Positions 35,865 through 44,474 of a stretch of DNA of 64,000 nt are shown one piece after another (the first letter of the stretch is position 1; every line of letters starts with the position of its first letter). A model generated the notes under the pieces. That model had not been told where the DNA came from, searched no databases, and saw only the letters and a program-made list of their open reading frames with translations. Position numbers and translations under genes: made by a program. The DNA is from Rhodospirillum centenum SW. GTDB taxonomy: Bacteria > Pseudomonadota > Alphaproteobacteria > Azospirillales > Azospirillaceae. The stretch lies in the NCBI RefSeq assembly GCF_000016185.1, contig NC_011420.2, positions 2,376,501 through 2,440,500 on the forward strand, read 5' to 3'.

Positions 35865-37265
35865 TCAGGCTGGCCGGAGGGCTGCCTTCGGGGCGATTGC
35901 GAGGGCGATTTTCTTGATGTTCTGGGCGGCGGCGGCGAGCAGGCACTGCCAGGTGACGCCGAGGAGGCCGCGGAAGCGTGCGTAGCGGTGCCCGAAGAGC
36001 TGTTTGGCGTCGGCAAAGGAGCGTTCGACCGTCTCTTTTCGTCGCTTGTAGATGGCCTTGCCCCAGGGGGTCTTGCGGTGGGCGTCGGTGCGCTCGCGGA
36101 TGTCGGCCCAGAGGTGGCGGGTGATGGTGCGGACGGCCTTGGGGTTGCGGGTGCACGACGCGAGCAGCGGGCAGGCGAAGCAGAGGGCCGGATCGCTCCT
36201 GTAGTGGCGGTAGCCGTTGCGGTCGGTGGTGGCGTAGGCGAGGGCCTGTCCGCCGGGGCATGACCAGGTGTCGGTCCCGGGCTCGTAGGTGAAGGCGCTC
36301 TTGGGCATCATCCCCGGGGCCGGGGGTGTCGGTCGGTTGTAGCCGGTGACGCCGAGGATGGCGCGGTCCTCCAGCCCCTTTGCGATCCCGGCCGTGGCAT
36401 AGCCGGCGTCCAGCCCGACGGCCTTGACGTCGAGCGCGAAGCGGGCGCGCTGGCGGTCGAGCCGGCCGAGATAGACGATGCTGTCGTGCACGTTGGCGGG
36501 GGTGGCGAAGCTGTCGGTGATGATGCCATGGCGCCCATCCACGGTGCGGTGATCAAGGTAGAAGAAGCCGGTGGGCTTGCCATCGCGCACCATGTAGCCG
36601 CTCTCCGGATCGGTGCGGCTGATCTTGGTCTCCTTCTCGGGCGGCTGCCGGTCCTTGGGCTTGAGGGGCTTCTTGCCGTGGGTGGCGCGGTCCGCCTCCA
36701 CCGCCCGGTCCAGATCGTCCCAGTAATCCGCCCGCGACTTGGCGACCACCGCCTTGTCGTAGCGGTTCTTGTTGGCGTTGGCCTTGAGGTGGGTGCTGTC
36801 GGTGTAGAGCACGGTGCCGTCCACCAGCCCGTGGCCGATCGCCTGCTCCACCACATGGTCGAAGATGTCCTGCGCCACGGAGGTGTCCCGGTAACGCCGG
36901 CGCCGGTTCTGGCTCAGCGTCGAGGCGTCGAACACCGGATCGGTCAGGCGCAGACCCAGAAACCAGCGATACGCCACGTTCACCTGGATCTCGCGCACCA
37001 GCTGGCGTTCGGAGCGGATGCCGAACAGGTAGCCGATGAACAGCGCCTTGAACATGACAACCGGATCAAGGGCCGGACGGCCGTTGTCCGGACAGTAAAG
37101 CCCGGACACGCGATCATGGATGAAGGAGAAGTCGATCACCGCGTCGATCTTGCGAAGCAGGTGATCGGGCGGAACCAGACCGTCGAGCGTCACCATCTCG
37201 ATTTCAGTCTGCTGCGCCGTCGGTTTCCTCAGCATGACCAATCGAATCACAAAGGCCCGGCTCAC
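35865..37265 (-). CDS. IS1182 family DDE transposase
   Basis: The protein has up to 466 residues. Near the N-terminus is the IS1182 pattern LVPPDHLLRKIDAVIDFSFI and PALDPVVMFKALFIGYLFGI. The catalytic triad appears as Asp in VLYTDSTHLKANANKN, Asp in VGLDAGYAT and Glu in VERSFADAKQLFGHRYARFR, with a Cys pair region (CFACPLLASC) before the Glu. The frame is uninterrupted, so the element may be active. The GTG at 37265 has a weak AAGG; ATG at 37235 is the other start. It reads toward acs. Confidence 0.94.
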   Translation of the reverse strand: MSRAFVIRLVMLRKPTAQQTEIEMVTLDGLVPPDHLLRKIDAVIDFSFIHDRVSGLYCPDNGRPALDPVVMFKALFIGYLFGIRSERQLVREIQVNVAYRWFLGLRLTDPVFDASTLSQNRRRRYRDTSVAQDIFDHVVEQAIGHGLVDGTVLYTDSTHLKANANKNRYDKAVVAKSRADYWDDLDRAVEADRATHGKKPLKPKDRQPPEKETKISRTDPESGYMVRDGKPTGFFYLDHRTVDGRHGIITDSFATPANVHDSIVYLGRLDRQRARFALDVKAVGLDAGYATAGIAKGLEDRAILGVTGYNRPTPPAPGMMPKSAFTYEPGTDTWSCPGGQALAYATTDRNGYRHYRSDPALCFACPLLASCTRNPKAVRTITRHLWADIRERTDAHRKTPWGKAIYKRRKETVERSFADAKQLFGHRYARFRGLLGVTWQCLLAAAAQNIKKIALAIAPKAALRPA

Positions 37266-37517: not shown

Positions 37518-38141
37518 ATGCAGACTCCGCGCCTCCTCCTTGTCGCCGCGACCAGCCTCCTGCTCGGCCTTGCCGTCTCCCTGCCGGCCGAAGCCCAGCA
37601 GGCCCAGCCGCAGAAGCAGACCCAGCAGAAGAAGCAGCCCCAGAAGAAGCAGCAGCCGCAGAAGAAGGCCGCCGCGGAGCCGGTGAAGGAGGTGGCGCCG
37701 CCGCCCCCGACCCTGCCGCAGCCCTCCACCCCCACCAGCTTCGCGCTGATCCACACCCTTCAGAACATGACGACCAAGCCGCTGGATCTGGTGATCCGGG
37801 CGGACGGGACCGAGGTGTTCGCGGGCAAGCTGCCCGGCCGGCCGGAGAAGGCCGCCGAGGGGGCGGAGCCGCCGACGCTGCGCACGGGCATGACCCTGGC
37901 GGTGGAGAAGGAGACGACCCACTTCTGGGAGATCGTCTATGTCGAACCCGAAGCGAAGAAGCAGTGCCGCCAGGCCTGGACCGGCATGTTCGCGCCGGGC
38001 GGCGAGACGCCGGCCCTGATCGCGCCGCCGCAGCAGGTGAACAGGTCGGGCCAGTGCGACTTCATGATCGACGTGACACCGGCCAGCGAGCCGGGCTCGA
38101 TCTACGACATCCGGGTGCAGGTGGCCGCGGCACCGCACTGA
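37518..38141 (+). CDS. Secreted protein of unknown function, Q/K/P-rich N-terminus
   Basis: The 207-residue precursor starts with a signal peptide (MQTPRLLLVAATSLLLGLAV...EAQ). A strongly repetitive Gln/Lys/Pro segment follows (residues about 28-55), then PPPPTLPQPSTPTSF and a compact domain of about 140 residues with two cysteines (KQCRQAW, SGQCDF) that could form a disulfide. I do not recognise the family. The start is ATG 37518, with AGGGAA upstream; GTG 37512 is an alternative. It lies 375 bp before the Zorya-like genes but has its own terminator. Confidence 0.7.
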   Translation: MQTPRLLLVAATSLLLGLAVSLPAEAQQAQPQKQTQQKKQPQKKQQPQKKAAAEPVKEVAPPPPTLPQPSTPTSFALIHTLQNMTTKPLDLVIRADGTEVFAGKLPGRPEKAAEGAEPPTLRTGMTLAVEKETTHFWEIVYVEPEAKKQCRQAWTGMFAPGGETPALIAPPQQVNRSGQCDFMIDVTPASEPGSIYDIRVQVAAAPH

Positions 38142-38184
38142 CACGGCGCATACCGGCGCGGCGCCCGCATACGCGGCGGGATGG

Positions 38185-38213
38185 AAGGGCGGCTCCGACG
38201 GGGGCCGCCCTTC
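38185..38213 (+). terminator. Terminator after the secreted unknown protein
   Basis: AAGGGCGGC pairs with GCCGCCCTT around a loop of about ten bases and is followed by CTGCGTTG. It lies 44 bases after the stop codon. Confidence 0.6.
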
Positions 38214-38303
38214 TGCGTTGCGCCACAGCGCGACTCCGGGACGTGCCGGCCTGCCATACTGCGGCCACACGAAGGGGCCATTCCGGTCCGGCCCGCCTCC
38301 CCC

Positions 38304-38346
38304 GCGCGGACGGTCCGCGCCCCTCCCCCGCGCGGACGGTCCGCGC
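38304..38346. promoter_or_regulatory. Twin 17-bp palindromes, candidate operators
   Basis: GCGCGGACGGTCCGCGC occurs perfectly at 38304-38320 and again at 38330-38346. Each is a perfect 8+1+8 dyad, and their 26-bp spacing comes from a tandem duplication of CTCCCCC plus the palindrome. They lie 171-213 bases before the zorA-like start. Such paired sites are typical of dimeric repressors, but no regulator is encoded nearby. Confidence 0.55.
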
Positions 38347-38516
38347 CATGGATGCGTGCCACATCCGCGCATTTCCGGACATTGCCCGCCATCCCGAACC
38401 GCTATACGAATGACCGGCGCGACCGCATCCGGCCGCAGGTCCCGGCCCCCGCCCCGGATCGCACCGACCGTCCCCCCAGAACCGATCTGCCCCCGCACGC
38501 GATGGAATACTAGGAG

Positions 38517-40808
38517 ATGTTCAAGGCGATCTTTGCAGCCCTTGCGCCGGTCGTTTCGAACGACTGGGTGATCGGCTCGGTTCTGGTCGGACTGTGTGCC
38601 TGGGCGATCTGGTCGGGGACGCGGTTCGTCCGCGCCACGCTCCGCTTCCGCAAGGCCCTGTCCGGGGCGCGGGCAACGGTCAGACAGTCCTCCGACGCGG
38701 CCGCCTTCGCAGAGCGGTACGGGGAGATCGACACGGCCCTGGCCGAAGATCCGGTCCTGGGCGAGCGCTGGTGCGAGTTCCGCAACTCCCTGCTGCTGCC
38801 ACGCCAGCCCGGACAGCCGGTCCGCACCACCGTGCGGCCGAAGACCTGGTTCGATGTCGGCCTGCTGCATTCGATGCCCGGCGGCGTCAACCTGCGCTAC
38901 CACACCGCCATGCCGAACCTGCTGGTCGGGGCGGGACTTCTGTTCACCTTCCTGGGGCTGGCCGCAGCCCTGGGGTCGGCCGGCGGGATCGTGGCCGGAA
39001 CGGCGGAGATCCGGAACGAGGCGCTGCGCCTGCTGCTGGGCACGGCCTCGGCCAAGTTCGTCACCTCGCTGGTCGGCATGGGCCTGTCGATCACCTATGC
39101 CATCACCACCAAGGTCCTGCTCAAGCGCGTCGAGGACGATCTGGCCGGTCTCCTCTCCGCCCTGGAGGCCCGCATTCCGCTGATCACCCCGGCCGACCTG
39201 CAACGGGAGACGAACGATCTCCTGGAACGGCAGACCGACCGGATGCAGGCGGTCTCGGCCGACCTGGCCGCCGGCCTGGGCAGCGCCTTCGACCGTGCCT
39301 TCGACGCGCGGCTGGGCGAGCATGTCGGTCCGCTGACCCAGGCCATGCAGCAGCTCGCCCTGGGCCTGGGCTCGCACAACGAGCAGGCGATGGCCGCCAT
39401 GCTCGACTCCTTCCTCCAGGGGCTGCGCGGCGGCACGGGCGAGCACATGCAGCAGGTCGTGGACAGCCTCTCCGGGCTGGGCAGCCGGCTGGAAGGGGTG
39501 CAGCAGGGGCTGGGCGAGGCCGCGGTGCGGATGACCCAGTCCGCCGACACGGTCGCCAACCGACTGGGCTCCGGCACCGAGGCGGCCCTGGCCCGGATCA
39601 CCGATCAGATGGGCGGGCTGGCCGAGACGCTGGGCCGGATCGCCGAGCAGAGCCGGACCACCGGCGCGGAGGCCGGGGAGCGGATGGCGGCCCGGATCGA
39701 AGCGGCCGCCGCCGGCTTCGAGGAGTCGGCCCGCAACGTCGCCACCCTGCTGGAACGGACGGCCGCGGCCGTCGAAGGCAGCATGGGCCGGCAGACGGAG
39801 GAGACCGCCGCCCGCCTTGCCGAGCGGGTGGAGGCGATGACGGCGGAGCTGAGCGCCCTGGCCGCCAGCAGCCGCACCGCCGGGATCGACGCCTTCGACC
39901 AGCTCGCCACCCGTGTCGCGGAGGCCAGCACCGCCCTGGAACGCAGCGTGGGCCGGATCGGCACCCTGCTGGAACGCTCCGCCAGCGAGGGCGGCGACGC
40001 GCTCGGCCGCGGGGCGGAGAAGGCCGTGACCCGGATCAGCGACGCCACCGAAGGCATGCGCGCGGAAATCCAGGCGATGCTGGCCGAGCTGCGGGCCTCC
40101 GTCGGCACGGCGGGCGAGGCGCTGCGCAGCAGCGGTGCCGAAGGGGCCGCGGCCTTCCGCGACGGGCTGGGCGACGCCGGCGGCTCCATCGCCGCGGCGG
40201 TCCGGGACGCGGCCGACCGGCTGGGCCGCGCCGGGACCGAGGCCGCGGACGCGCTGGGCCGCGGCGGGGAGACGGCCGGCACGGCCATGCGCAGCGCCGG
40301 CGGGCTGCTGGGCGACAAGGTCGGCACCCTGACGCACGAGATCGCGGCCCTGGCCGCCGCCGCCAACGCCCTGGCCACCCGCAGCGTGGAGTTCGAGCGT
40401 GCCGCCGGCGCGGCCGCCGGGCCGCTGCTCCAGGCCTCCACGAATCTGAGCACGGCGGGCCAGACCGTCCGGGGCACGACGGAGTCGCTGGGAACCGTCG
40501 TGCAGGCCGTGGGGCGGGCCATCGAGCAGGTCTCCGAGGCGTCGGGCCGGCTGGACGCGGCCACCTCGGCGGCCGGTCGGCTGGCCGACGGTCTGGCGAC
40601 AGCGGCGAAGCGGTTCGAGGGGATCGACGGCGATCTCGCCCGGACGCTCGCCGCGTTGCAGGACGGTCTCCAGGGCTTCGCCCGCGAGATCAACGGCTTC
40701 GTCAGCCAGACCGACCAGAACCTCGCCAAGGCGGCGACCCAGATCGCCGCCCTGGTCAAGGGACTGGAAGAGACGCTCGAAGATTTCAGTGCGGACCAGA
40801 ACCGCTGA
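38517..40808 (+). CDS. zorA: MotA/TolQ-like channel protein with long helical tail, ZorA-like
   Basis: This 763-residue membrane protein has segments near residues 17-34, 133-152 and 179-200, the last two in MotA/ExbB/TolQ-like context (LLVGAGLLFTFLGLAAALG, KFVTSLVGMGLSITYAIT). From about residue 205 to the end is an unbroken alpha-helical, Ala/Glu/Arg-rich cytoplasmic tail. This plan, with a MotB-like partner directly downstream, is that of ZorA, the pentameric stator-like part of Zorya anti-phage systems, whose tail is thought to carry a signal of cell-envelope disturbance inward. Ribosome site TAGGAG is 5 bases before the ATG. An ordinary flagellar MotA lacks the tail. Confidence 0.85.
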   Translation: MFKAIFAALAPVVSNDWVIGSVLVGLCAWAIWSGTRFVRATLRFRKALSGARATVRQSSDAAAFAERYGEIDTALAEDPVLGERWCEFRNSLLLPRQPGQPVRTTVRPKTWFDVGLLHSMPGGVNLRYHTAMPNLLVGAGLLFTFLGLAAALGSAGGIVAGTAEIRNEALRLLLGTASAKFVTSLVGMGLSITYAITTKVLLKRVEDDLAGLLSALEARIPLITPADLQRETNDLLERQTDRMQAVSADLAAGLGSAFDRAFDARLGEHVGPLTQAMQQLALGLGSHNEQAMAAMLDSFLQGLRGGTGEHMQQVVDSLSGLGSRLEGVQQGLGEAAVRMTQSADTVANRLGSGTEAALARITDQMGGLAETLGRIAEQSRTTGAEAGERMAARIEAAAAGFEESARNVATLLERTAAAVEGSMGRQTEETAARLAERVEAMTAELSALAASSRTAGIDAFDQLATRVAEASTALERSVGRIGTLLERSASEGGDALGRGAEKAVTRISDATEGMRAEIQAMLAELRASVGTAGEALRSSGAEGAAAFRDGLGDAGGSIAAAVRDAADRLGRAGTEAADALGRGGETAGTAMRSAGGLLGDKVGTLTHEIAALAAAANALATRSVEFERAAGAAAGPLLQASTNLSTAGQTVRGTTESLGTVVQAVGRAIEQVSEASGRLDAATSAAGRLADGLATAAKRFEGIDGDLARTLAALQDGLQGFAREINGFVSQTDQNLAKAATQIAALVKGLEETLEDFSADQNR

Positions 40809-40822
40809 TCGGAAGGTGATGC

Positions 40823-41767
40823 ATGGCGATGGTCACCGGCCCGGATGAGGAAACCGAAGAGGGGTACTTCGCCTCCATCAGCGACCTCATGATCGGCATC
40901 CTGTTCATATTCCTGCTGATGCTGACCGTGTTCGCCCTGAATTTCCGCAATGCGGAGGAGAAGGTCGTCGATCTGTCCCGTTACGAGGAGGTCGTGAACG
41001 AGGCCCGCCGCCTGACGGAAGAGGCGGCGAAGCAGAAGCAGGAGAACGAGGAACTGCGCCGGCTGCTGACCCAGGCGGTGGCCCAGCTTGAGCGCGACAT
41101 CGAGAGTCGCCGGAGCATGCGCAACCAGATGCTGCAGTCCCTGGAGGCGAGCCTGGACAGGCAGGGTGTACGGGTGACCCTCGATCCGGAATCGGGTATT
41201 CTGCGTCTGTCGGGCGACCTGCTGTTCGAAACCGGCAAGGCCGTCTACCGGGAAGAGGCGGACCGGACGGTCAAGGTCATGGCCGACATCCTGGGAAGCG
41301 TGCTTCCCTGTTTCGCGGAAGGTGCGTCGGTGGCGTGCCCGGGTGAGAGGATGCCGATACTGGAAGCCGTTCTGGTCGAGGGCCATACGGACCGCCAGCC
41401 GTTCCGCAACGTGCCGCCCGCCCAGTCGCAGGCGCTGAACGACCGGCTGTCCACGGAACGCGCCCTGGCCGTCTTCCAGAGCCTGCGCGAGACCAGCCCG
41501 GTGCTGGAGACGCTGCGCAACCCGAGCGGCCAGCCGCTTCTGGGCGTTTCCGGCTACGGCGAGCGCCGCCCCCTGCCCGAGGCGCAGGGGACGACGGAGG
41601 AGGATTACCGCCGGAACCGCCGGATCGACCTCCGCTTCGTCCTGTCCTCCCGCACCTCCGACGAGCTGGAGCGGCTGCGCGGTCGCATCCATGACGTTCT
41701 CGGCCCGGACCAGGAAGGTCAGGGCCAGGACCATCAGGGCCAGGATCATCAGGGGAAGACGCCATGA
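40823..41767 (+). CDS. zorB: MotB/OmpA-like partner, ZorB-like
   Basis: This 314-residue protein has a short cytoplasmic start, one membrane helix (about residues 22-39), a coiled coil to about 110 and a C-terminal OmpA/MotB peptidoglycan-binding domain (LSGDLLFETGKA, EGHTDRQPF, YRRNRRIDLRFVL). Asp21 in FASISDLMIGIL sits where the proton-carrying Asp of MotB and ZorB lies. It starts 14 bp past zorA. The last 20 residues form GQGQDHQ repeats not typical of the family. It would pair with the ZorA-like protein to form an ion-driven unit anchored to the wall. Confidence 0.87.
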   Translation: MAMVTGPDEETEEGYFASISDLMIGILFIFLLMLTVFALNFRNAEEKVVDLSRYEEVVNEARRLTEEAAKQKQENEELRRLLTQAVAQLERDIESRRSMRNQMLQSLEASLDRQGVRVTLDPESGILRLSGDLLFETGKAVYREEADRTVKVMADILGSVLPCFAEGASVACPGERMPILEAVLVEGHTDRQPFRNVPPAQSQALNDRLSTERALAVFQSLRETSPVLETLRNPSGQPLLGVSGYGERRPLPEAQGTTEEDYRRNRRIDLRFVLSSRTSDELERLRGRIHDVLGPDQEGQGQDHQGQDHQGKTP

Positions 41768-43218
41768 GCCTCATGCGTGAGGCCCTGATCTCCTTGCAGG
41801 CGACGGCTGGCCGGTTGCCTCACTACGCGATGCTGCCCGATATGCCGGAGAGCGGCCGGCTGGTCACGGCCCTGGCCGGCGCCAACGCCGCCCCGGCGCC
41901 GCCGGGCGACGACATGCTGGCCGCGGTGCGCCGGCGTCTGCTGGAGGCGGCGCGCGGCCCCGGCGGGGTGGCGGCGGCGGCGCCGCGGGACCTCTGCGAT
42001 GCGCCCTGGCTGATGTGGGGCGGCCTGGACCCGCTGGCCGGGCTGAACGGCCTGCTGGAAGCCGTGCTGGACGTCTGCAACCGCCGCAACCGGGCCCGCC
42101 GCACCCTGATCGAGGCGTGGATCCGCAACTTCTCCTACGACATGCCCCGGATCGCGGAGGCCGGCAACGGCATCCGGCGCCTGATCACGGCGGCCCGCCG
42201 GCCCCGGCTGGAGCCCTGGCGGGACGCGGACGCCTGGTGCCGGCTGTTCGACGCGGCGGACGGCCCCCGCACCCTGGCGCGCTGGATCGTCCTGACCGAC
42301 GAGCCGGTGGACACCCTGCTGGGCCGCGCCTGCCTGGACGATCCGATGCGCGCCAGTTCCGGCTATGCGCGGACGATCCAGGCCGAGGTGCTGTCCCTGG
42401 TCCCCGACCATCTGGCCGGCCCCGCGGGCGCCCAGCGGGTCGCCCGGGTGGCGGATTTCCTGGCCCCCGGCGACAGCCTGCGCTTCGACGAGCCGGAGAG
42501 CCGCGGCCAGATCGTCCGCAGCCTGATGGCACCCTGGCTGACCGGGCGGTCCGGGCTGGAGGAGCCGACCCGTGCGGCGGTGCAGAAGTTCCTCCTGGCC
42601 CGGCTCGGCGATCCGCGCACCCGTCCCGGCCAGTGGGTCCGTGCGGGCGAGGATGCCGTCGCGCTGATGGAGACATGGCTGTCCCGCGCGGCGCTGGGCG
42701 CCTTCTTCGATCTTGTCGGGGAACAGAACCACGATCCGGACTGGCGCTACCGCGAAGCCTTCTGGTCGGCCTGCATGGAGGCCGGCGGCATCGACGACGC
42801 CTGGCTGGCGCTGGGCCGGACCGTCCGCCGCTCGGCCCCCGCCCTGCACCATCTGAAGGGCGCCTATGGCGAACTGGTCGGCCCTGGCTTTCACGGCGAC
42901 CAGACGGTGCTGCTGCTGCGCGTCCGCGACACCGTCTTCTGCGAATGGAGCCATGCCGGGAAGCTGCGGGCCTGGCCGGCCGAGGGGGAGGACGCCCCAC
43001 GGCTGCACCGCGCGAGCTATACCCGTCCCGACCTGACGGCGCCGTGCCTGCCCTTCCCGCCGAACAAGCGCCACTGGGCACGCGGCAGTTCGGACGGCAA
43101 CGGCCTCAGCCATGTCGGTTCGGAATCCAGCCGCTGGCAGGGCAGCGTCGCCCGGCTGCTGGAGGAGCGGGCGGGCATCGCGCTCACCGCTGCCGACTGG
43201 ATGCCGGGCCGGGCCTGA
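41764..43218 (+). CDS. zorC: EH-signature-domain protein, ZorC-like
   Basis: The 484-residue soluble protein overlaps zorB by ATGA. The C-terminal half has DWRYREAFWSACMEAGGIDDAW and FCEWSHAGKLRAW, which resemble the EH_Signature domain found in ZorC. Glu394 is the likely Glu of the signature; His397, His437 or His450 (GLSHVGSESSRW) may be the His. The N-terminal 300 residues are helical. In Zorya type I, ZorC is recruited with ZorD to act on invading DNA, but no zorD is present here. The family call is from memory of motifs and should be checked by profile search. Confidence 0.7.
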   Translation: MSLMREALISLQATAGRLPHYAMLPDMPESGRLVTALAGANAAPAPPGDDMLAAVRRRLLEAARGPGGVAAAAPRDLCDAPWLMWGGLDPLAGLNGLLEAVLDVCNRRNRARRTLIEAWIRNFSYDMPRIAEAGNGIRRLITAARRPRLEPWRDADAWCRLFDAADGPRTLARWIVLTDEPVDTLLGRACLDDPMRASSGYARTIQAEVLSLVPDHLAGPAGAQRVARVADFLAPGDSLRFDEPESRGQIVRSLMAPWLTGRSGLEEPTRAAVQKFLLARLGDPRTRPGQWVRAGEDAVALMETWLSRAALGAFFDLVGEQNHDPDWRYREAFWSACMEAGGIDDAWLALGRTVRRSAPALHHLKGAYGELVGPGFHGDQTVLLLRVRDTVFCEWSHAGKLRAWPAEGEDAPRLHRASYTRPDLTAPCLPFPPNKRHWARGSSDGNGLSHVGSESSRWQGSVARLLEERAGIALTAADWMPGRA

Positions 43219-43258: not shown

Positions 43259-43858
43259 TCAGCCGGGCGGTGCCCCTGCCGGGGCCGGGGCCGCACCGGG
43301 GATGCTGCCGGGCAGCGTGTCGAAGCCGCTGGGGAAGAGCTGCTTGATCACATCGGCGACCAGGAAGCGGAAGCTGGCCTGCTCCGGACGCAGTTCGCCG
43401 GCGATGCGGTCCGCCGCCGTGCTCAGCACCGTGCCGCTCTCGCACAGGGCGGCCGTGACATGGTTGGTCGTCCCCAGATCGTCGAAGCGGGGGGCCTGCG
43501 GCGCCTGATCGTCCGGCGTCGCCGCCACACCGTCGCACAGCCGCGCGGCCTCCACCGGCTCGGGGCCATGGAAGACCATCACCAGCCGGTAGTCGGCCTC
43601 CGGCCGGTAGGCGGACGATTTGGTGAAGTTGCGCTGCGGGTCGGCAAGCGGCTCCGGCAGCGCCGCCGCGATGCGCCGGCCGAATTCCTCGGCCGCGACG
43701 CCGTCGGGCAGCCGGCCGCGAACCTCCAGCACGAAGCCCATGTCCGGGGCCGGCAGTTCCAGGGCGGGGGCAGCCGGGGCGGGCTGCGCTGCGGCCGGGG
43801 AGGCCAGCATCACCAGCAGAACCGCCGTGAGCAGCCGGAAGGGACGTCGGGACATCAT
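43259..43858 (-). CDS. Secreted protein of unknown function
   Basis: The precursor has about 200 residues, beginning at paired ATG codons (43858, 43855), with signal peptide MSRRPFRLLTAVLLVMLASP...AQA. The mature part has a compact alpha/beta pattern (FVLEVRGRLPDGVAAEEFGR, YRLVMVFHGPEPVEAARLCDG) and a Pro/Ala-rich end. Two cysteines (RLCDG, ALCESG) may bond. I do not recognise the family. It lies just downstream of the secreted nuclease gene on the same strand and converges on the Zorya-like operon. Confidence 0.65.
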   Translation of the reverse strand: MMSRRPFRLLTAVLLVMLASPAAAQPAPAAPALELPAPDMGFVLEVRGRLPDGVAAEEFGRRIAAALPEPLADPQRNFTKSSAYRPEADYRLVMVFHGPEPVEAARLCDGVAATPDDQAPQAPRFDDLGTTNHVTAALCESGTVLSTAADRIAGELRPEQASFRFLVADVIKQLFPSGFDTLPGSIPGAAPAPAGAPPG

Positions 43859-43934: not shown

Positions 43935-44474
43935 TCAGGGCCGCTGTGCCACCTCGCACCAGCCGGCACGGGCGCCACCGGAATAGGGCCGGGCGTAACC
44001 GGCGCCGATCAGGGTCTCCGCCACGTCCGTACCGTCGGGCAGCAGCACCCGTGCCCGCACCCGGCCGCCGTACTTGTCGTAGTCCACGTCGCGCAGCAGG
44101 ACGCGGGAGCGGTCCCGCTGCACCAGCCGGCGCAGCATCTCATGGGCGGCGCGGGCCATCTCCTTCTCGCGCTCGCACTTGCCGCGGATCTCCGGCGTGT
44201 CGATGCCATCCAGCCGGACACGGGTCTGCAGTTCCTGATCCAGCCAGACCTTGACCCGGACGGACAGCGTATCGCCGTCCACCACCTCCAGCACCTCCGC
44301 GGCGACGGGACCGGGCAGCCCCTCCCCCCGCGCCACGGCGCCCGCGGGCAGGAGGGCGGCGAGCAGGGCCAGCATCGGCAGACGGACAAGGGGGTGGCGG
44401 AGCGGACGGGACACGGACAGCGCACGGGCGGAGTTGCGGGGACAGCAGTCTAGCGTGGGCAAGGGCGGCGACAA
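43935..44474 (-). CDS. Secreted thermonuclease family (SNase-like) protein
   Basis: Up to 179 residues. The SNase fold is clear: VLEVVDGDTLSV, TRVRLDGIDTPEIRGKCERE, YDKYGGRVRARVLLPDGTDV and ETLIGAGYARPY, with the active-site Arg and acidic residues. A signal peptide (LPMLALLAALLPAGAVA) exports it, so it probably degrades nucleic acid in the periplasm or outside. The start is uncertain: ATG 44474, GTG 44414, or an internal ATG nearer the leader. It lies 76 bp upstream of the small secreted protein gene. Confidence 0.88.
   Translation of the reverse strand: MSPPLPTLDCCPRNSARALSVSRPLRHPLVRLPMLALLAALLPAGAVARGEGLPGPVAAEVLEVVDGDTLSVRVKVWLDQELQTRVRLDGIDTPEIRGKCEREKEMARAAHEMLRRLVQRDRSRVLLRDVDYDKYGGRVRARVLLPDGTDVAETLIGAGYARPYSGGARAGWCEVAQRP

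What the first reader, a model, noticed from the sequence alone, without database searches (positions are those of the whole stretch)
38517..43218. Zorya-like ABC operon without zorD
Three tightly packed genes encode a MotA-like channel protein with a 550-residue helical tail, a MotB/OmpA-like partner with Asp21 in its membrane helix, and an EH-signature-type protein. This is the zorA-zorB-zorC core of Zorya defence. Known type I loci add zorD (a helicase/nuclease), and types II and III have other effectors. Here the next genes are on the opposite strand and encode secreted proteins. Either the ZorC-like protein works alone, an effector is encoded elsewhere, or the locus is degraded; all three frames are intact. 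It may be a reduced or new Zorya variant.
Basis: partly seen in the sequence, partly recalled or inferred. Interest (0 to 1): 0.82.

Follow-up and report, generated by a model that had tools for sequence, protein, structure and literature searches.

The report
Zorya phage defence missing its nuclease
A bacterium (probably Rhodospirillum centenum) carries three of the four genes of a known anti-phage defence machine, the membrane motor and its DNA-linked adaptor, but has cleanly lost the fourth gene, the DNA-cutting enzyme that its closest relatives still have, so it is either a stripped-down variant or a recently broken system.

Summary
Confirmed: 38517-40808, 40823-41767 and 41764-43218 encode ZorA, ZorB and ZorC of the type I Zorya kind; all frames are intact and no zorD follows. 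The likely history is secondary loss: in ZorB and ZorC trees the window sits inside a well supported clade whose six other members all have zorD beside zorC, including Azospirillum tabaci and A. oryzae (ZorC 58% identical). The window and its single-contig genome hold no ZorD; the only hit is a DrmD-like helicase in another operon. The neighbouring SNase and secreted-protein genes are not effectors: the same gene row exists in a relative without Zorya. ZorA/B/C keep key residues (ZorB D21; ZorC E394, H450), host-like codon use and the constraint seen in ZorD-bearing relatives, so no decay is visible. But ZorABC without ZorD did not protect E. coli in the published test I could read, so an inactive recent remnant is a serious rival. 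ABC operons without D also occur elsewhere: one group lies beside magnetosome or iron-transport genes in ten sampled genomes, another operon directly behind a chemosensory gene row. That is the more surprising lead, found outside the window. Verdict: a reduced variant of a known kind, moderate interest.

The parts
38517..40808 (+). zorA: MotA/ExbB-like channel subunit with long helical cytoplasmic tail (763 aa)
   Evidence: PADLOC ZorA1 5e-54; NCBIfam NF033914 202.7 bits, cut-off 190; PDB 8vvn_C 1.9e-5
40823..41767 (+). zorB: MotB/OmpA-like stator subunit, D21 in the membrane helix, peptidoglycan-binding domain (314 aa)
   Evidence: PADLOC ZorB1 7e-84; PDB 8vvn_B 1e-19, D21 aligned with D24
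41764..43218 (+). zorC: EH_Signature protein (484 aa), E394 and H450 kept, unique R78C; 4-base overlap with zorB
   Evidence: Pfam PF15611 3e-92; PADLOC ZorC1 5e-70; profile of its family matches E. coli ZorC 8r68_A 4e-26; residues
43219..43258 (.). 40-base gap where zorD stands in the closest relatives; no ZorD remnant
   Evidence: zorC/zorD junctions of L014 and L015 against the window; ZorD tblastn and HMM over the window give nothing below E about 0.8
38142..38516 (.). upstream region of the operon; relatives carry a divergent ~350-aa gene here, the window does not
   Evidence: profile search without a hit here
37518..38141 (+). left neighbour (207 aa), part of the conserved chromosomal gene row, not of Zorya
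   Evidence: same neighbour in Zorya-free G012 (L062)
43259..43858 (-). right neighbour (199 aa, secreted), part of the conserved gene row, not of Zorya
43935..44414 (-). SNase-type nuclease, part of the conserved gene row, not a Zorya effector
   Evidence: Pfam SNase 7e-10; relatives in 37 of 59 family genomes, same position in Zorya-free G012

Best explanation
This is a type I Zorya operon that has secondarily lost zorD. Descent from a four-gene operon is shown by the trees; what follows about function is inferred. ZorA and ZorB still build the peptidoglycan-anchored, ion-driven 5:2 motor with its long cytoplasmic tail, which senses damage to the envelope when a phage injects. ZorC is still recruited to that tail and binds the incoming DNA. 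With no ZorD to cut, the remaining module most likely acts as a sensor and DNA-binding clamp whose cutting step is weak, is done by a nuclease of the host, or is missing. My separate estimates: secondary loss of zorD 0.9; ZorA/B/C still made and under selection 0.6; some anti-phage effect without ZorD 0.35.
For: Family identity of all three proteins. The closest relatives (ZorC 58% identical: L014, L015; also G006) carry zorD directly after zorC, in L014 and L015 with a 4-base overlap. The window is nested in a clade with six zorD-positive loci in both the ZorB and ZorC trees, support 99 and 100. No zorD or remnant in the window or genome. The cassette sits between two neighbours that are adjacent in Zorya-free G012. 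No loss of constraint: changes at clade-invariant sites are 15/134, 7/104 and 13/114 in the window for A/B/C, against 13/142, 10/106, 11/112 and 14/133, 12/108, 18/119 in zorD-positive L102 and L058. GC at third codon positions is 0.93/0.86/0.92, as in host genes and mostly above the Azospirillum copies (0.78-0.85), suggesting long residence. ZorD-less ABC operons recur in other lineages.
Against: In the one published genetic test I could read (a Serratia type I system in E. coli), deletion of any component, ZorD included, abolished protection (PMC11890865). ZorC has a substitution, R78C, at a position that is arginine in all 17 other sequences aligned. Relative-rate tests show faster change of window ZorA than of Azospirillum ZorA with two of three outgroups (chi-square 13.8 and 10.8; 0.05 with the third). 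No partner nuclease is identified. The same clade contains a locus with frameshifts in zorA and zorC (G006), so decay happens there, unless those are sequencing errors.
Confidence: 0.5

Rival explanations
1. Inactive remnant: zorD was deleted not long ago, the system no longer defends, and zorA, zorB and zorC are intact only because too little time has passed.
For: ZorABC without ZorD gave no protection in the published assay (PMC11890865). R78C in ZorC. Faster ZorA evolution in two of three comparisons. A frameshifted sister locus. The divergent upstream accessory gene is gone too.
Against: No frameshift or stop in 4.7 kb. Clade-invariant sites are kept as well as in ZorD-bearing relatives. 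Not even a fragment of zorD is left. Codon use has adapted to the host.
Confidence: 0.35
2. Repurposed: the ABC module is an envelope motor with a job other than phage defence, as suggested for ABC operons without D that sit beside magnetosome genes or behind a chemosensory operon.
For: ABC operons without D recur: ten loci beside magnetosome or iron-transport genes, a chemosensory-linked one, and loci in two genomes of the window's own family.
Against: Those lineages are distant from the window (ZorC about 22-25% identical where measured); the window is inside a zorD-bearing clade and inserted alone among housekeeping genes. Close relatives are sporadic: besides the window, 3 of 82 genomes of its order, as expected of a defence system.
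Confidence: 0.1
3. Complete Zorya with the effector supplied in trans by a helicase or nuclease gene elsewhere in the genome.
For: The genome encodes a SNF2-type helicase (G000:C1:84332-87196, in L022) that a ZorD profile hits at 6e-16.
Against: It is far better explained as DrmD (3e-210), matches only the helicase part of ZorD and sits in its own operon. With a real ZorD protein as query the hit is only 26% identical, E 7e-6.
Confidence: 0.05

Closest known systems
Zorya type I (zorABCD)
   Same: ZorA, ZorB and ZorC families, gene order, overlapping zorB/zorC, ion-path Asp, long ZorA tail, EH signature
   Different: zorD (SNF2 helicase with Mrr-like nuclease) is missing here; it is present in 34 other loci of the trees, including the six nearest to the window
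Zorya type II (zorABE) and type III (zorABFG)
   Same: ZorAB motor
   Different: ZorA and ZorB match type I models best; types II and III have no ZorC; no zorE, zorF or zorG next to the operon
Azospirillum tabaci W712 and A. oryzae COC8 zorABCD (L014/L023, L015/L024)
   Same: ZorC 58%, ZorA about 60% and ZorB 69% identical; same gene order
   Different: they have zorD and a divergent ~361-aa gene in front of zorA; a related copy lies on an A. oryzae megaplasmid
MotAB / ExbBD / TolQR motors
   Same: five-subunit channel plus two-subunit peptidoglycan-linked partner (established knowledge)
   Different: 550-residue cytoplasmic tail and an EH_Signature partner gene; best models are ZorA and ZorB

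Membership tests
Zorya type I | ZorA: MotA-like channel with long helical cytoplasmic tail | tested here: met
Zorya type I | ZorB: membrane helix with ion-path Asp and a peptidoglycan-binding OmpA-like domain | tested here: met
   D21 aligned to D24 of 8vvn_B; domain aligned over residues 82-286
Zorya type I | ZorC: EH_Signature protein | tested here: met
Zorya type I | ZorD: SNF2 helicase with Mrr-like nuclease | tested here: not met
Zorya type I | Protection against phages | not testable with these tools
   needs plating assays; the published ZorABC variant without ZorD did not protect (PMC11890865)
Zorya type II | ZorE HNH nickase gene beside zorAB | tested here: not met
   neighbours scanned; none is ZorE
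Zorya type III | ZorF (DUF3348) and ZorG (DUF2894) beside zorAB | tested here: not met
   neighbours scanned
Defence island | other defence genes nearby | tested here: not met
   PADLOC scan of ten neighbours finds one weak match and one match to housekeeping rsmB; the cassette sits in a conserved gene row

The most novel reading that the evidence does not exclude
ZorABC without ZorD is a working module in its own right: a peptidoglycan-anchored rotary motor with an EH-type adaptor that bacteria use with other outputs. The operon in this window would be a defence version that blocks injected DNA without cutting it, and the magnetosome-linked and chemosensory-linked operons would be versions used for cell organisation or sensing.
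Probability: 0.2. Interest if true: 0.8.

Novelty: new variant of a known kind. Interest (0 to 1): 0.45.

Why it matters
Published work treats ZorD as indispensable for type I Zorya. An intact ZorABC that has lost ZorD but keeps its constraint would let one test what the motor and ZorC do by themselves, an open step in the Zorya mechanism. The recurrence of ABC operons without D in other lineages suggests that the motor-plus-ZorC part may have functions beyond cutting phage DNA.

Tried and rejected
ZorD remnants in the window: tblastn and profile searches with ZorD proteins, no hit below E about 0.8. A remnant of the divergent upstream gene: a tblastn hit of E 1.3 at 38417-38067 was not confirmed by the family profile, so judged chance. 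SNase as effector: rejected because it is a conserved neighbour in Zorya-free relatives. DrmD-like helicase as ZorD substitute: rejected. A phosphorelay through the Hpt-like end of the magnetosome-linked ZorC: not claimed, because the histidine is not conserved. Structure of window ZorC: AlphaFold with three sequences gave mean pLDDT 51, and the fold search had no hit at E <= 0.001, so neither was used. Flanking repeats or target-site duplications: nothing convincing. Promoter scan: no sigma-70-like site, uninformative at this G+C. dN/dS on the window branch was not attempted because synonymous sites are expected to be saturated at this divergence. Papers on a 'type IV' Zorya or on Zorya and magnetosomes: none held; Hu et al. 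2025 (Nature) is not held.

Full report
What is there. The window lies at 2,376,501-2,440,500 of a single-contig genome of 4,355,543 bases. The size, and Azospirillum among the closest relatives, fit Rhodospirillum centenum SW; this identification is from memory of its genome size, no tool named the record. Three genes on the + strand, 38517-40808, 40823-41767 and 41764-43218, encode ZorA, ZorB and ZorC of the type I kind. PADLOC gives ZorA1 5e-54, ZorB1 7e-84 and ZorC1 5e-70; Pfam gives EH_Signature 3e-92; the NCBIfam ZorA_1 subfamily is passed (202.7 against 190 bits), whereas the narrower type I equivalog models for ZorA1 and ZorB1 are not. ZorB D21 aligns with D24 of the solved Shewanella ZorB, the ion-path aspartate described in PMC11890865. 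A profile of the ZorC family matches the solved E. coli ZorC, 8r68 (4e-26). Window ZorC keeps the E/D position (E394) and the invariant H450; that these are the two name-giving residues is my inference.

What is missing. In the closest relatives, Azospirillum tabaci W712 and A. oryzae COC8 (ZorC 58% identical) and G006, a 968-984 aa ZorD follows zorC directly, in the two Azospirillum loci with a 4-base ATGA overlap. In the window zorC ends at 43218 and a convergent gene ends at 43259. No ZorD fragment exists in the window. The genome search finds only a helicase near 85-87 kb, which is DrmD-like (3e-210) and belongs to another operon. The relatives also have a divergent gene of about 350 aa in front of zorA, conserved in all six near zorD-positive loci; the copy tested has no Pfam or PADLOC match. 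It is absent from the window as well.

Surroundings. In the Zorya-free relative G012 the row acs - 207-aa gene - 199-aa gene - SNase - htpX - rsmB has no Zorya genes, with about 90 bases between the two genes that flank the Zorya cassette in the window. So the cassette lies in a conserved chromosomal row, and the neighbouring SNase and secreted-protein genes are not part of it. SNase relatives occur in 37 of 59 genomes of the family. PADLOC finds no other defence gene among the neighbours; its one strong hit, mad2, is to the housekeeping methyltransferase rsmB. An IS-type transposase gene (35865-37235) lies between acs and the 207-aa gene.

History. I drew the surroundings of ZorC loci from samples of the class (13 of 385 genomes with EH_Signature) and the phylum (37 of 399). 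Every canonical ZorC locus examined had zorD beside it, except the window, G093, and the loci of G015 and G020, some of which lie on short contigs; two very divergent loci (L127, L128) also lack it. In ZorB and ZorC trees the window is nested in a clade of seven with six zorD-positive members (support 99 and 100). This is best read as a secondary loss. The trees need five changes of the zorD label in all, so its absence arose more than once; the direction of the other changes is not settled by the trees.

Is it alive? The frames are open across 4.7 kb. At sites invariant in the other clade members the window changes 11%, 7% and 11% (A, B, C), like zorD-positive L102 (9, 9, 10%) and L058 (11, 11, 15%). 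Third-position G+C is host-like, 0.86-0.93, against 0.78-0.85 in one Azospirillum copy, which suggests long residence. Against this: R78C in ZorC at a site that is arginine in all 17 other sequences aligned, and faster ZorA change in two of three relative-rate comparisons. With no second strain I cannot separate continued selection from a recent loss.

How it probably works. For complete systems, published work shows a ZorA5B2 ion-driven motor with a peptidoglycan-binding ZorB and a ZorA tail required for defence, and reports recruitment of ZorCD (PMC11890865; review PMC12904381). Deletion of any component abolished protection in that work. From the anatomy, the window's ZorAB should still form the sensor motor and ZorC should still be recruited. 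The cutting step has no gene here. I therefore favour a reduced, still maintained sensor-adaptor module with weak or host-assisted output (0.5), with an inactive recent remnant close behind (0.35).

Wider finding. A second set of ABC operons without D has a giant ZorA (1154-1610 aa), a 297-322 aa ZorB and a short ZorC of 421-447 aa with a partial EH_Signature and, in some members, an Hpt-like end. All ten sampled loci lie beside magnetosome-type or iron-transport genes: seven have MamD within a few genes, with MamH and MamE nearby where the contig reaches (the MamD and MamH models pass their NCBIfam cut-offs, MamE does not); three have FeoB, with a metal-efflux gene in the same stretch. The Hpt-like end lacks a conserved histidine. 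The hosts belong to the same phylum but not the same class as the window; I infer magnetotactic cocci, but no names are available. In G093, zorABC follows a CheB-CheY-CheA-CheW-cyclase gene row by 54 bases. These point to uses of ZorABC without the nuclease. They are not direct evidence on the window.

Noticed in passing
L118-L126, L129 and wider loci L136-L143 (G573, G520, G523, G473, G499, G464, G495, G492, G506, G469): Zorya-type operons without ZorD (giant ZorA of 1154-1610 aa, ZorB, short EH-type ZorC) sit beside magnetosome genes (MamD, MamH, MamE-like) or FeoB and metal-efflux genes in all ten sampled genomes; full-length copies occur in 10 of 18 genomes of one family. Possibly a motor tied to magnetosome biology.
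   Followed up: partly
L019:1-11236 (G093): zorABC without zorD lies 54 bases behind a CheB-CheY-CheA-CheW-adenylate cyclase/GAF/PAS gene row on the same strand, suggesting a chemosensory link.
   Followed up: partly
L014:5345-6430(-), L015:14221-15306(+), L016:5505-6572(-), L102:13107-14180(+), L058:6494-7525(+), L054:5041-6087(-): A conserved divergent gene of 343-361 aa in front of zorA in this alphaproteobacterial Zorya I clade; no Pfam or PADLOC match for the L014 copy tested. Possibly an undescribed fifth component; missing from the window.
   Followed up: partly
L020:2442-10102 (G015): zorABC without zorD is convergent with a gene row that includes a PP2C-like gene and a protein kinase gene of the STK_OB model.
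   Followed up: no
L018:6598-10340 and L017:6963-8426: zorA followed directly by zorC with no separate zorB found (L018), and a zorC without zorA or zorB (L017), each with a 192-aa gene on the other strand upstream.
   Followed up: no
L016:6643-11326 (G006): zorABCD locus with frameshifts in zorA and zorC but an intact zorD: a decaying sister locus or sequencing errors.
   Followed up: partly
L022 (G000:C1:80000-92000): Operon with a DrmD-like helicase (954 aa) and two further genes of 605 and 554 aa, likely another defence system in the window's own genome.
   Followed up: partly
window 35865-37235 (-): IS-type transposase gene between acs and the 207-aa gene, close to but not bordering the Zorya cassette.
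   Followed up: no
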